A DNA stretch of 29,205 nucleotides from a virus: positions 1 through 29,205 of the IMG/VR virus record IMGVR_UViG_3300033997_000177; one strand, 5' to 3'. Positions within the stretch are counted from its first letter, which is position 1, and every line of letters starts with the position of its first letter. A program made the position numbers and the translations under genes. Below are positions 413-29,205 of this stretch, piece after piece. The notes under the pieces were generated by a model, which had not been told where the DNA came from, searched no databases, and was given only the letters and a program-made list of their open reading frames with translations.

Positions 413-439
413 TAGGTACCTGATAAATCAGGATTTTCT

Positions 440-486
440 TGGTAGGCCCCCCGAGAGTCGAACTCGGCACCAACGGATTATGAGTC
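440..486 (-). tRNA. 3' half of a tRNA gene with CAU anticodon (tRNA-Ile2 or Met), attachment-site remnant
   Basis: Read on the minus strand, the segment runs CTCATAA anticodon loop, TCCGT stem side, a T-arm CCGAG-TTCGACT-CTCGG, acceptor GGGGCCT, A, CCA. The CAT anticodon is at 480-482. The 5' side of the anticodon stem should be ACGGA, but the window has ATTGA, and no D-arm or 5' acceptor (AGGCCCC) follows. The gene is therefore cut inside the anticodon arm. This is the usual product of tyrosine-integrase insertion into a tRNA gene, where the phage copy rebuilds the full tRNA at the other end. I cannot tell Ile2 (lysidine) from elongator Met with half a tRNA. Confidence 0.85.
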
Positions 487-616: not shown

Positions 617-632
617 CTGTATATTCATACAG
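617..632 (+). promoter_or_regulatory. LexA box (SOS operator) overlapping a -10-like element
   Basis: CTGTATATTCATACAG fits the gammaproteobacterial-type LexA core CTGT-N8-ACAG with an AT-rich centre. TATATT at 620-625 can serve as a -10, which would put the transcript start at or within a few bases of the ATG at 635. No convincing -35 is visible. LexA binding here would block the promoter until DNA damage. Confidence 0.75.
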
Positions 633-634
633 CC

Positions 635-880
635 ATGCCCTACTTTCTGCCTGACGCTATCCGCCCGGGCGGCTGCTGGGTCTGTACGCACTTCCACGGT
701 GAAACGACCGATGAGGGCCGCAGACCATTCTGCCGCCGAGACCCAGGGCACCCGATCAGCCCATCCCATCCGGACGATGGCTGTTCTAGCTGGATGCGTG
801 AGCCAGGAGCAGATGATGAGATCAAGCTGGCAGCGGAACGCAAGGGATGCTCGACAGCTGTTTTTCCGCTACGGCGTTAG
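635..880 (+). CDS. Small Cys/His-containing protein under LexA control
   Basis: This is an 81-residue protein. The start ATG at 635 is only two bases after the LexA box, so the mRNA would be leaderless or nearly so; there is no Shine-Dalgarno. The N-terminal PGGCWVCTHFHGE segment (about residues 11-23) holds a CxxC followed by two histidines, and further cysteines follow in RPFCRRD and DGCSSW, which suggests metal binding. I recognise no family with a known function. It is the outermost phage gene on this side, opposite in strand to the lysis operon, and its stop overlaps the stop of the Rz1 gene by four bases. An upstream in-frame ATG at 524 would add 37 unlikely residues across the LexA box. 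A role in SOS-dependent prophage induction or in host response is inference. Confidence 0.7.
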   Translation: MPYFLPDAIRPGGCWVCTHFHGETTDEGRRPFCRRDPGHPISPSHPDDGCSSWMREPGADDEIKLAAERKGCSTAVFPLRR

Positions 881-1101
881 TCGTCAGCCCCAGGCCAGTC
901 GCACAACCTCACCCCAAGCTCATTGTGGGCCAAGATTCGCTGCGCCGTCCGATCCGTCAGAACGTCGGCTTGCTCAATGAAGATCGGGCCAGACACAAAG
1001 CAGAAGTCATTGCCCACCGGTTCCCGGCTTGCGCATCCACTTGCGACGAAGCTCAGCGTCAGCGCCACCAACAGGCATACGATCGATCTTGGATTGCACA
1101 T
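877..1101 (-). CDS. Rz1: o-spanin, Rz1-like outer-membrane lipoprotein
   Basis: This is a 74-residue lipoprotein in the last step of lysis, linking the outer membrane to the inner-membrane spanin so the membranes can fuse. A hydrophobic signal (about residues 7-20) ends in the lipobox FVASGC with the acylated Cys at 23. The mature part is about 52 residues, with an ADVLTD...ILAHNE segment that I have seen in phage Rz1-type proteins. The ATG at 1101 has a strong AAGGAGG seven bases upstream; an ATG at 1122 in the same frame lies before that site and is less likely. The gene starts inside the Rz gene in another frame, the classic overlapping spanin arrangement. Confidence 0.8.
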   Translation of the reverse strand: MCNPRSIVCLLVALTLSFVASGCASREPVGNDFCFVSGPIFIEQADVLTDRTAQRILAHNELGVRLCDWPGADD

Positions 1102-1273
1102 CACGGGCCTCCTTGGCGGCATCTACCGCTTGCTTGTTGATCTGGGCCTGCACTTCCTGGCGGCCGTCGGACTTGCCTTTAAGGCGCACGCCAAAGTAGG
1201 CCAGGGCGATAGCAACGCCGCCGGCCAGATAGGGCCAGTATTGGGCAAGTAACGCAGATAGGATGGCGTTCAT
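1007..1273 (-). CDS. Rz: i-spanin, Rz-like inner-membrane protein
   Basis: This is an 88-residue protein with an N-terminal transmembrane segment (about residues 4-22, AILSALLAQYWPYLAGGVAIA) followed by a charged, helical periplasmic part (EVQAQINKQAVDAAKEARDVQSKIDRM), as expected for an i-spanin. The start at 1273 overlaps the endolysin stop as ATGA and has GAGGCGG upstream. The same frame is open to 1411, but that extension lies inside the endolysin gene. Shorter than lambda Rz (153 aa) but within the range of spanins. Confidence 0.75.
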   Translation of the reverse strand: MNAILSALLAQYWPYLAGGVAIALAYFGVRLKGKSDGRQEVQAQINKQAVDAAKEARDVQSKIDRMPVGGADAELRRKWMRKPGTGGQ

Positions 1274-1767
1274 CGCACCGCCTCTAAAGCTCGGTTGTAC
1301 AAGGCGTCCCAGGTCTGCCGATGGGGCTTCCCAGGGCGCCAGGTCCTGGTGTATAGACCCCAGGCTTGATCTGTCTCGCCCAACGCCGGCAGAGGCTTGG
1401 GATCCGTCCACAGCAGCAGACGGGCAAAGGCGGCCGCCAGCACGTCATCCTGGTCTAGCGCGGCGTAGGCCGCATCCGTCGTAGCCGGGATGCCACGGGC
1501 CTTGCAAACAGCCTTGGCAGCTTCTCGGGTGGTGTCGTGCATGATCACCCCCCTTACCCCACCGCCCTTCTCAAACTGCCAGAATCCCCGTGCTGGGCCG
1601 CCAATCTGCTGGCGGTGCTGGAACCGGCTTTCCTGCAAGCCGATCGCCAGCATCATGCACCGGGCTTCCTTCGTATCCATCCTGGCCGGCAGGAGCGCAA
1701 AGGCTGGAACCATGGCCTTGGATGCGATCTCATCAAGAGTCGGATCCGGAACTTTGTTGGGCTGCAT
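1270..1767 (-). CDS. Endolysin, lysozyme/transglycosylase-like
   Basis: Cytoplasmic peptidoglycan-cleaving enzyme released by the holin. The segment MMLAIGLQESRFQHRQQ with a following PARGFWQFE is the typical active-site region of this endolysin group; the Glu of LQES is the likely catalytic acid. The frame is open upstream to 1914, but the upstream part is Ser-rich low complexity read from the holin transmembrane codons in another frame, so an internal start is needed. I chose the ATG at 1767 (MQPNKVPDPTLDE..., 165 aa), which leaves about 18 residues before the conserved ALLPARMDT; an ATG at 1797 is also possible. The 5' end overlaps the holin gene by about 35 bases. No signal or SAR anchor is visible. 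Confidence 0.8.
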   Translation of the reverse strand: MQPNKVPDPTLDEIASKAMVPAFALLPARMDTKEARCMMLAIGLQESRFQHRQQIGGPARGFWQFEKGGGVRGVIMHDTTREAAKAVCKARGIPATTDAAYAALDQDDVLAAAFARLLLWTDPKPLPALGETDQAWGLYTRTWRPGKPHRQTWDALYNRALEAVR

Positions 1768-2014
1768 TACGGGCGTCTGTGAGCCGTTGCTGGACATAGA
1801 ACTTGCTGAGGATTCCTCCGAGGATGAGGAAGATGCCGAAACCGTAGACGACCCAAGGCGGGAAAACAGCTCGTATATCGTCCGGAACGTTGCGCCAAAC
1901 TTCGATAGCCACATCAGTCATGCTCCCAAGGGCAATAAAAAAGGCTGCCGCAGCAGCCTGAAATCGAACGGAATGGGAGCGCCACCAGGAGCGCCATTCA
2001 GGCACTAGCCTCAT
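1733..2014 (-). CDS. Holin, two transmembrane segments
   Basis: This 93-residue protein has a short basic N terminus, a first membrane segment (about 19-40, QAAAAAFFIALGSMTDVAIE), a linker, a second one (about 52-71, PPWVVYGFGIFLILGGILSK) and a polar tail rich in Q and S. This layout and its place directly before the endolysin fit a class II-type holin. A run of G bases upstream of the ATG can act as ribosome binding site. The codons for QAAAAFF form an intrinsic terminator on the coding strand (1936-1959), described separately. Confidence 0.75.
   Translation of the reverse strand: MRLVPEWRSWWRSHSVRFQAAAAAFFIALGSMTDVAIEVWRNVPDDIRAVFPPWVVYGFGIFLILGGILSKFYVQQRLTDARNAAQQSSGSDS
1936..1959 (-). 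terminator. Terminator-like hairpin inside the holin gene
   Basis: On the minus strand AGGCTGC, loop TGCG, GCAGCCT and then TTTTTTATT form a 7-bp perfect stem with a 4-base loop and a U-run. It lies inside the coding sequence for the first holin membrane segment. It has all features of an intrinsic terminator for the late transcript. Confidence 0.6.
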
Positions 2015-24835: not shown

Positions 24836-25150
24836 TCACAGACCCCGGCTGTGGTTCTCGACTTCGGCCTGCAAATACTTGGCCAGCATCGTTTTCATGG
24901 CGAACAGCTCATGGCGGCTGATCACCATTGCGTTCGAAGGAGCCAGTTGAAAGCCCAGTGCGGCCAGCAGCTGGCACAGCTGATCAAGACCGTCCTTGGA
25001 ACGGCTAAGAGTGCTGGCATCCACGCCCATGCAAGCTGCTGCACGCGTCTGCGTGAACTCGGCAAGACGCCGCAATACTTCGCCCTGAATTCTTGCGCCG
25101 GTCTTGCGGGTGCTTTCCACCTGATCGGCAGATACTGGCTGTGTGCTCAT
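24836..25150 (-). CDS. CII-like transcription activator
   Basis: This is a 104-residue protein. RIQGEVLRRLAEFTQTRAAACMGVDASTLSRSKDG (HTH about 33-50) and LDQLCQLLAALGFQLAPS fit the phage CII family (lambda CII, 97 aa), which activates lysogeny promoters. It sits in the CII position of the early operon. A possible but imperfect CII-type site (TTGC-N7-TTGC, 25095-25109; lambda has N6) lies in its own 5' end on the plus strand. Confidence 0.8.
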   Translation of the reverse strand: MSTQPVSADQVESTRKTGARIQGEVLRRLAEFTQTRAAACMGVDASTLSRSKDGLDQLCQLLAALGFQLAPSNAMVISRHELFAMKTMLAKYLQAEVENHSRGL

Positions 25151-25724: not shown

Positions 25725-25830
25725 GGGCAGCTCGCCTCGCGCGCTCTCCAGCAAGCTCTCGCTCAAGCCGGTCTAGCAGCTCGTCGGGGTACTGGGGAAG
25801 CGCGCGGATTACGCGGCGGATGCTAGACAT
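25477..25830 (-). CDS. Unknown early protein after cro
   Basis: This is a 117-residue protein. The N-terminal 50 residues (IRRVIRALPQYPDELLDRLERELAGERARRAALKAADAKNLQETA) are strongly helical with good coding codons. ATG at 25830 overlaps the Cro-like stop by 8 bases. The C-terminal half lies opposite to the plus-strand 104-aa ORF and looks less convincing. Function not recognised. Confidence 0.5.
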   Translation of the reverse strand: MSSIRRVIRALPQYPDELLDRLERELAGERARRAALKAADAKNLQETASLLAIAPPMPAGWGAPTGYRTVAIGRPLVEVVRDALAQDPWPSPTGIAGIAVGSRPVSYPAAEQFPFDS

Positions 25831-26071
25831 TCGCTGTCTCCTTAGACTCGGACTCGCCAAGCATTGCGGGAGGCAGGATCTTGCGTGAAGGCCGAGGAGA
25901 AATTGCCGGGCGGGGGATCTGCTTCGGCTTCATTCTGTGAAACGCCAACAGCCATGAGCGCGGGATGTGGTCTTCCTTTGCCCATTGAGAGATGCGGCCT
26001 TTCGTGAGACCCGTCAGTCGCATGACCGCGGCCCGGCCGCCCATGGCTTCGATGATTTGGATAGCGTTCAT
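25823..26071 (-). CDS. cro: Cro-like / YdaS-type repressor
   Basis: This is an 82-residue protein. The HTH (about 4-35, IQIIEAMGGRAAVMRLTGLTKGRISQWAKED) is typical for YdaS/Cro proteins, and it is the first gene of the early operon, opposite to the CI-like gene. A promoter (TAGACA-N17-TATACT) ends directly before the ATG, so the mRNA would be leaderless. It should bind the operators GTATAGA-N4-TCTATAC. Confidence 0.75.
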   Translation of the reverse strand: MNAIQIIEAMGGRAAVMRLTGLTKGRISQWAKEDHIPRSWLLAFHRMKPKQIPRPAISPRPSRKILPPAMLGESESKETANV

Positions 26072-26152: not shown

Positions 26153-26530
26153 ATGGACAAGTATGAAAACCGCCGGCGACGGCTCCTGCGCCTTGTGCTG
26201 GAGCGTGCTGAAGGCAACGCTGCGTCTTTTGGGCGTATGTATGGATACGAACGCGCTCAGATCTCCCAGTTCCTGTCAGCCAAATACAACGGTGGCCGCA
26301 GTATCGGAGAGAACGCAGCGGCAGAGTTAGAACGCAAGGTCGGCGTACCGCAAGGATGGCTAGACCAGGTTGAGCACGCCATTGAAGACGCTTGGCCGTT
26401 CTCGATCCCTTTTGAGCGCTATCTGAGCTTAGATGATGAGAAGAAGAAGAGACTTGACGAACGTGTTGTCGAGTTCATAGAAGGCGCGACTCCCGTCAAA
26501 AGCTCAACCCCCACCAAGAACGCAGCTTAG
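26153..26530 (+). CDS. Short CI-like prophage repressor without peptidase domain
   Basis: This is a 125-residue protein. The HTH region (about 15-70: RAEGNAASFGRMYGYERAQISQFLSAKYNGGRSIGENAAAELERKVGVPQGWLDQ) is typical for phage CI proteins. After it there is only a short charged helix and a Lys/Thr-rich tail; the Ser-Lys peptidase domain (LexA-type, about 100 residues) of cleavable CI proteins is missing. The gene is complete, so this is not a truncation by the window. The ATG at 26153 lies 7 bases after the PRM -10, so the transcript is likely leaderless. Confidence 0.75.
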   Translation: MDKYENRRRRLLRLVLERAEGNAASFGRMYGYERAQISQFLSAKYNGGRSIGENAAAELERKVGVPQGWLDQVEHAIEDAWPFSIPFERYLSLDDEKKKRLDERVVEFIEGATPVKSSTPTKNAA

Positions 26531-28884: not shown

Positions 28885-29205
28885 TTGAAACACGAGATCA
28901 AGAACCGCTGGACCGGCGCCGTGCTCTTCACGGCTGATGTGCCCGAGGGCACCGAGAGCGGGCTGATTGCTCGTGTCGCGGTGGAGCAGGCCGTGGCCGC
29001 CCGCGCGTACCTGGCCGGCGCGTACCTGGCCGGCGCGTACCTGGCCGGCGCGGACCTGGCCGGCGCGTACCTGGCCGACGCGGACCTGGCCGGCGCGGAC
29101 CTGGCCGGCGCGTACCTGGCCGGCGCGTACCTGGCCGACGCGTACCTGGCCGGCGCGGACCTGGCCGGCGCGTCCCTGGCCGGCGCGTACCTGGCCGTCG
29201 CGGAC
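28885..29205 (+). CDS. Pentapeptide-repeat protein, 3' end outside window
   Basis: At least 107 residues. An N-terminal part (KHEIKNRWTGAVLFTADVPEGTESGLIARVAVEQAV) leads into 13 full A(Y/D/S)LA(G/D/V) repeats and continues off the window. TTG at 28885 has AGGGAG 6 bases upstream; an in-frame ATG at 28843 overlaps the previous stop (ATGA) and would add 14 residues. Pentapeptide repeats form a right-handed square helix; some such proteins bind DNA gyrase, but no such role can be claimed here. Confidence 0.8.
   Translation, partial: MKHEIKNRWTGAVLFTADVPEGTESGLIARVAVEQAVAARAYLAGAYLAGAYLAGADLAGAYLADADLAGADLAGAYLAGAYLADAYLAGADLAGASLAGAYLAVAD
29005..29205 (+). repeat. 15-bp tandem repeat GCG-NNC-CTG-GCC-GNC
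   Basis: Thirteen full units plus a partial one. In every unit the Ala codons are GCG then GCC and the Leu codon is CTG. The only changes are TAC/GAC/TCC in codon 2 and GGC/GAC/GTC in codon 5. Confidence 0.9.

What the first reader, a model, noticed from the sequence alone, without database searches (positions are those of the whole stretch)
617..880. LexA-controlled gene at the prophage edge plus a peptidase-less CI: possible Tum-like induction switch
The window shows a perfect-core LexA box (CTGT-N8-ACAG) two bases before the ATG of an 81-aa Cys/His protein. The only CI-like repressor (26153-26530) lacks the Ser-Lys peptidase domain and so should not self-cleave with RecA. Phage 186 solves the same problem with a LexA-controlled antirepressor, Tum, that is separate from its non-cleavable CI. 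That this unknown protein is the antirepressor is inference; it could also be an SOS-timed host-takeover or stress gene.
Basis: partly seen in the sequence, partly recalled or inferred. Interest (0 to 1): 0.7.

Follow-up and report, generated by a model that had tools for sequence, protein, structure and literature searches.

The report
DNA-damage-controlled gene at prophage edge

Summary
A perfect-core LexA box (617-632) ends 2 nt before the ATG of an 81-aa Cys/His protein (635-880), about 150 bp inside a prophage whose edge lies at 486/487 in a tRNA gene. Alone the box could be chance (28 of 100 shuffles). Conservation makes it real: 29 of 42 non-identical relatives carry CTG-N10-CAG within 20 nt of the start, against 0 of 41 control windows; upstream of the box nothing is conserved. 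The CI does lack a peptidase domain. The Tum-like reading is not supported: relatives 70-75% identical sit in phages whose CI carries the S24 peptidase domain (13 prophages or records), and a distant one lies in a P2-like phage. The gene belongs to a LexA-controlled slot near attP. In related prophages the slot holds SRAP (an SOS/abasic-site protein) and/or one of several unrelated small proteins (A here; B, B', C), mostly with their own LexA box (C 65/65, B' 13/13, B 14/14). Best reading: an SOS-timed accessory gene tied to DNA damage and expressed independently of CI. Its biochemical function is unknown; a role with SRAP on damaged DNA is inferred. Pfam, PHROGs, NCBIfam and PADLOC give no significant match.

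The parts
435..486 (-). 3' part of a tRNA gene with CAT anticodon, left behind at the attachment site; host DNA to its left
   Evidence: Identity to many genomes of the Bordetella trematum family ends at 486; ARAGORN finds no complete tRNA here
617..632 (+). LexA box CTGTATATTCATACAG
620..625 (+). possible -10 hexamer TATATT inside the box; the mRNA would then be leaderless or nearly so (inferred; no conserved -35, no promoter found by the consensus scan)
635..880 (+). family A gene: 81-aa Cys/His protein; C14, C17, C33, C50, W53 and an REPGADDE-type stretch conserved
   Evidence: no significant match in Pfam (DUF7140 at E 0.011, below its cut-off), PHROGs, NCBIfam or PADLOC
877..2014 (-). convergent lysis cassette (Rz1/Rz-like, endolysin, holin-like); context only; functional names are my reading of the translations
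   Evidence: relatives of these genes lie convergent and downstream of family A genes in several other phages
26153..26530 (+). CI-like repressor without S24 peptidase domain; N-terminal relative of the S24-bearing repressors of G001 and G004
25823..26071 (-). Cro/YdaS-like regulator; context
24836..25150 (-). CII-like regulator; context

Best explanation
The gene is an SOS-timed accessory ('moron') gene. Its own promoter overlaps a LexA box, so in the lysogen it is held off by host LexA and comes on directly when RecA-driven LexA cleavage starts, whatever the phage repressor is doing. It occupies a recurrent slot near attP (integrase, attP, slot, convergent lysis genes; after integration the slot ends up at the opposite end from the integrase). 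In related prophages the slot holds SRAP and/or one of several interchangeable LexA-boxed small proteins. The most likely job lies in the damaged-DNA phase of induction: a small zinc-binding protein acting with DNA or DNA-repair proteins (an SRAP-type partner), helping phage or host through SOS. Shown here: the box, its conservation, the location, the slot, the SRAP neighbourhood, and occurrence with different repressor types. Inferred: LexA binding, zinc binding, leaderless mRNA, and the DNA-damage role.
For: Box conserved at the start codon in 29/42 relatives, 0/41 control, also in the isolated phages AP3 (CTGTATAAATATACAG) and IPK (CTGTACATCCATACAG). Same box form at a host lexA gene. Gene at one end of 37-48 kb prophages with the integrase at the other. 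SRAP (PF02586) directly upstream in L006, L050, L055, divergent in AP3, adjacent in distant chromosomal members L145, L148, L151. The slot after SRAP also takes families B' and C, each with a LexA box: C 65/65 loci and 11/11 clusters, B' 13/13 and 4/4 clusters, control windows 0/64 and 0/11. Separate family B: 14/14. L056/L066/L061 look like a type A Cys domain fused to a helical part like B (hhalign E 5e-8 and 8e-8). PMC3765255 links SRAP neighbourhoods to SOS polymerases and, in some, to uncharacterised Zn-chelating domains, and notes SRAP in prophages.
Against: The window itself has no SRAP. 13 of 42 relatives lack a canonical box and have other upstream elements. No structure: two AlphaFold runs gave mean pLDDT 54 and 49, so no fold search was made. 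Distant chromosomal relatives mostly lack the box. Neighbourhood is not function. An S24 domain does not prove that a repressor is cleaved.
Confidence: 0.62

Rival explanations
1. Tum/GfoA-like antirepressor: LexA derepression makes the protein, which binds the peptidase-less CI and induces the prophage.
For: LexA-controlled, small, outside the immunity region, as for Gifsy antirepressors, Tum and AntC (PMC3121763); the window's CI lacks the peptidase domain. Antirepressors can act on non-cognate repressors (PMC3121763).
Against: Relatives 70-75% identical occur with S24 repressors that are only 25-35% like the window's CI in the N-terminal part; a distant member is in a P2-like phage; no DinI/Tum match; the same slot is filled by unrelated families.
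Confidence: 0.12
2. SOS modulator: binds RecA, LexA or the replication machinery (as DinI or phage GIL01 gp7 do) to tune the host SOS response.
For: Direct LexA control and early timing; a phage protein that binds LexA is known (GIL01 gp7, PMC4551915, abstract only).
Against: No sequence similarity to known modulators in Pfam or PHROGs; no structure.
Confidence: 0.14
3. SOS-timed growth-arrest or host-takeover protein that halts the cell before lysis.
For: LexA control, accessory slot beside the lysis genes, interchangeable unrelated small proteins as expected for an effector slot.
Against: No toxin family match; the frequent SRAP neighbour points to DNA damage instead.
Confidence: 0.1
4. Excision factor (RDF) needed when SOS triggers excision.
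For: Lies beside attP and integrase in the circular phage map; in L092 it follows the integrase stop codon directly.
Against: In 8 of 14 prophages looked at, a DUF4224 (5) or HTH_17 (3) gene, the usual kind of candidate, lies right beside the integrase; the protein is not basic (pI 6.4); AP3 carries the gene next to the portal and terminase genes, not the integrase.
Confidence: 0.04
5. The box is a chance match and the ORF is not a gene.
For: 28 of 100 shuffles contain a perfect core.
Against: Box and protein are conserved over many unrelated flanks.
Confidence: 0.02

Closest known systems
LexA-controlled antirepressors: Tum (phage 186), AntC (N15), GfoA/GftA (Gifsy) (PMC3121763)
   Same: Small protein, direct LexA control, gene outside the immunity region, prophage
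   Different: Here the gene also occurs with S24-domain repressors and in unrelated phage types, shows no DinI/Tum match, and shares its slot with unrelated families and SRAP
SRAP/YedK (PF02586) SOS loci (PMC3765255)
   Same: SOS-linked neighbourhoods, Zn-chelating partners and prophage copies were reported there
   Different: The passages read do not describe this slot, the LexA-boxed families A/B/B'/C, or their position next to attP and lysis genes
Bordetella phage vB_BbrS_PHB09 and Stutzerimonas phage vB_PstS-pAN
   Same: An SRAP gene followed by a family C(-like) gene; in PHB09 near the record end, in pAN between integrase and lysis genes
   Different: Family C instead of A; PHB09 has the box (CTGTGTTTTTATACAG), pAN has none there
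Burkholderia phage AP3 gene 0003 (hypothetical protein)
   Same: Distant family A member with a LexA box at its start
   Different: P2-like phage; SRAP gene divergent; followed by a toxin-antitoxin-like pair

Membership tests
LexA-controlled antirepressor (Tum-like) | Direct LexA control | tested here: met
   Conserved box at the start codon; binding itself not tested
LexA-controlled antirepressor (Tum-like) | Cognate repressor not cleavable | tested here: not met
   Window CI lacks S24, but relatives in 13 prophages or records coexist with S24 repressors
LexA-controlled antirepressor (Tum-like) | Sequence relation to a known antirepressor or DinI | tested here: not met
   No Pfam or PHROG match
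LexA-controlled antirepressor (Tum-like) | Binds and inactivates the repressor | not testable with these tools
   Needs pull-down or reporter assay
SOS regulon gene | LexA box at the promoter, conserved, same form as host boxes | tested here: met
SOS regulon gene | Induced by DNA damage through LexA | not testable with these tools
   No expression data
Prophage accessory (moron) gene | Own promoter, prophage location, not in a core operon, shared by unrelated phages | tested here: met
   the promoter itself is inferred from the box
Recombination directionality factor | Sole small candidate next to integrase | tested here: not met
   DUF4224/HTH_17 candidates beside the integrase in 8 of 14 prophages looked at
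Zinc-binding protein | Conserved Cys/His ligands | tested here: met
   C14, C17, C33, C50 invariant or nearly so; metal binding itself not tested

The most novel reading that the evidence does not exclude
Many Burkholderiales prophages carry a dedicated LexA-controlled cassette slot near attP, in which SRAP and a set of interchangeable small proteins (A, B, B', C) form a phage-owned DNA-damage module, expressed before and independently of CI inactivation, that acts on damaged phage or host DNA during induction.
Probability: 0.35. Interest if true: 0.75.

Novelty: new variant of a known kind. Interest (0 to 1): 0.55.

Why it matters
If true, a LexA box in a prophage need not mean a LexA-driven induction switch: here it marks an accessory slot in phages whose repressor can have its own S24 peptidase domain. 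That matters for tools that call prophages SOS-dependent from LexA sites in prophage promoter regions (PSOSP, PMC12527982). It also gives several uncharacterised, strongly conserved small protein families a shared regulation and a shared neighbour (SRAP), which makes their function directly testable.

Tried and rejected
AlphaFold2 with 14 and 26 sequences gave mean pLDDT 54 and 49, so no fold search was run. A PDB sequence search gave only chance-level hits. The phage and plasmid collections had no match to the window protein itself; the more divergent member L051 found AP3 and IPK. DUF7140 (E 0.011) is below the Pfam cut-off and was not used. The excision-factor idea was tested through integrase-adjacent genes and put low. 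Hits L009-L011 from the genome scan look like chance partial matches. An order-level search found distant chromosomal relatives mostly without a box. An idea that phage SRAP counters base-removing defences was looked up (PMC11078745): the paper tests host YedK for Brig1 immunity and finds it not required, and gives no support either way. No paper describing this slot was found in seven searches of an open-access subset.

Full report
Observation. The box CTGTATATTCATACAG is at 617-632 on the + strand and the ATG of an 81-aa ORF is at 635. In this window alone a perfect CTGT-N8-ACAG is not rare enough to mean anything: 28 of 100 shuffles have one. The prophage edge is real. Bases 1-271 match a chromosome at 93% (two genomes have such a match), bases 435-486 match a tRNA in many genomes, and identity stops at 486 in most of them. 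The CI-like protein at 26153-26530 has no S24 peptidase domain, and none was found elsewhere in the window. The window ends before the integrase.

Conservation of the box. Relatives were collected from viral contigs, from 268 genomes of the family of Bordetella trematum and from a wider order-level sample. The window, L002, L003, L004 and L032 carry the identical 16-mer at the identical distance, although the DNA upstream differs. Over 42 non-identical loci, 29 have CTG-N10-CAG ending 0-15 nt before the start, while 0 of 41 have one in a control window of the same size. In the 14 members with a 2-nt gap the conserved block runs from -19 into the start codon, and columns upstream of -20 are near random. 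The background frequency of the motif predicts about 0.9% per locus. The loci are related, so this is not 42 independent events, but the unrelated flanks show that the box is kept. The same form of box stands before lexA itself and before an imuA-like gene in B. trematum (the imuA name is my reading). LexA binding is therefore well supported but not shown.

Promoter. In the 2-nt class the hexamer TATATT or a close variant lies inside the box in 13 of 14 members; no -35 is conserved and the consensus scan finds no promoter. A leaderless or nearly leaderless mRNA would follow if that hexamer is the -10. This is inference.

The antirepressor test. If the protein were the inducer for a non-cleavable CI, it should travel with such repressors. 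G001, G002 and G004, whose proteins are 70-75% identical to the window's, encode S24-domain repressors, with the catalytic Ser and Lys contexts visible in the translations (my reading). Ten further prophages have an S24 hit 28-36 kb from the gene, on the integrase side. Some of these carry unboxed or truncated family A genes (L048, L053, L062, L063); about eight records with S24, counting G001, G002 and that of L032, carry a boxed, apparently full-length one. Six records with enough sequence have no S24 hit: the window, G005, one copy in G011, G109, G086 and G080. The window's CI shares 34-35% identity in its N-terminal part with G001 and G004 and 25% with G002. An S24 domain is not proof of cleavage, and antirepressors can cross-react (PMC3121763), so this lowers the idea rather than excludes it.

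The slot. In circular phage maps the order is integrase, attP, box, gene, then convergent lysis genes. In prophages the gene lies at one end and the integrase 37-48 kb away at the other. SRAP (PF02586) was found immediately upstream of box and gene in L006, L050 and L055, divergent in phage AP3, and beside distant chromosomal members L145, L148 and L151. In L062, L063, L096, L097, L098 and L106 only the first 20-30 codons of the family A gene remain, followed by other sequence and SRAP; in several of these SRAP is followed by a different small gene with its own box: B' in L096 and L098, C in L097 and L106. Family C has the box in 65 of 65 loci (11 of 11 clusters at 85% identity), control 0 of 64, SRAP directly upstream in 42 of 64. 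B' has it in 13 of 13 (4 of 4 clusters), control 0 of 11, SRAP upstream in 8 of 11. A further family B, first met at an exact CTGTATATTCATACAG in B. trematum, has the box in 14 of 14 loci with upstream DNA. L056, L066 and L061 combine a type A Cys domain with a helical part resembling B. The isolated Bordetella phage PHB09 shows SRAP, box, C; Stutzerimonas phage pAN shows integrase, SRAP, C-like gene, lysis protein, without a box.

Other carriers. The P2-like Burkholderia phage AP3 and Paraburkholderia phage IPK carry distant members with boxes CTGTATAAATATACAG and CTGTACATCCATACAG at the start. Distant chromosomal relatives elsewhere in the order mostly lack the box.

The excision-factor rival. 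In 8 of 14 prophages looked at, the gene beside the integrase belongs to DUF4224 or HTH_17, the usual kind of candidate, so the edge protein is not needed for that role.

Function. Cys14, Cys17, Cys33, Cys50, Trp53 and the REPGADDE-type stretch are the conserved features; zinc binding is likely but untested. No family library gave a significant hit and structure prediction failed. PMC3765255 reports SRAP in SOS neighbourhoods, in some with uncharacterised Zn-chelating domains, and in prophages, and proposed a damage-sensor role in the lysis pathway. On that basis I favour an SOS-timed accessory role on damaged DNA, with 0.62 for the overall reading (LexA-controlled accessory gene, not a CI antirepressor) and much less for any specific biochemistry.

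Verdict. The wider finding, a LexA-controlled slot with interchangeable small proteins and SRAP, was not described in the papers I could search (a subset of the literature).

Noticed in passing
L108-L125; B. trematum G007:C14:4632: Family B, a 95-aa 'AWEIWRLQR' protein found in many prophages, has a perfect or near-perfect LexA box 32-34 nt before its start in 14 of 14 loci with upstream DNA; no Pfam, PHROG or NCBIfam match.
   Followed up: partly
L152-L224: Family C, about 100 aa, has a LexA box before its start in 65 of 65 loci and SRAP directly upstream in 42 of 64; weak match to phrog_5560.
   Followed up: partly
L037, L048, L059, L088, L090, L097: Family A members without a LexA box start right after an element of roughly 65 nt bounded by an inverted repeat (GTTAGAAC...GTTCTAAC or GTCTAATA...TATTAGAC), somewhat like a recombination site.
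   Followed up: no
L041, L052, L053: Three family A members share TACTGGATAAACCACTGTATA where the LexA box should be: two half-sites in direct rather than inverted order.
   Followed up: no
L062, L063, L096, L097, L098, L106: Family A is cut after about 20-30 codons and other genes including SRAP follow, suggesting exchange of cassettes within the gene.
   Followed up: partly
window 28960-29205: The right end of the window is a long run of GCGTACCTGGCCGGC-type repeats, probably a pentapeptide-repeat protein, cut by the contig end.
   Followed up: no
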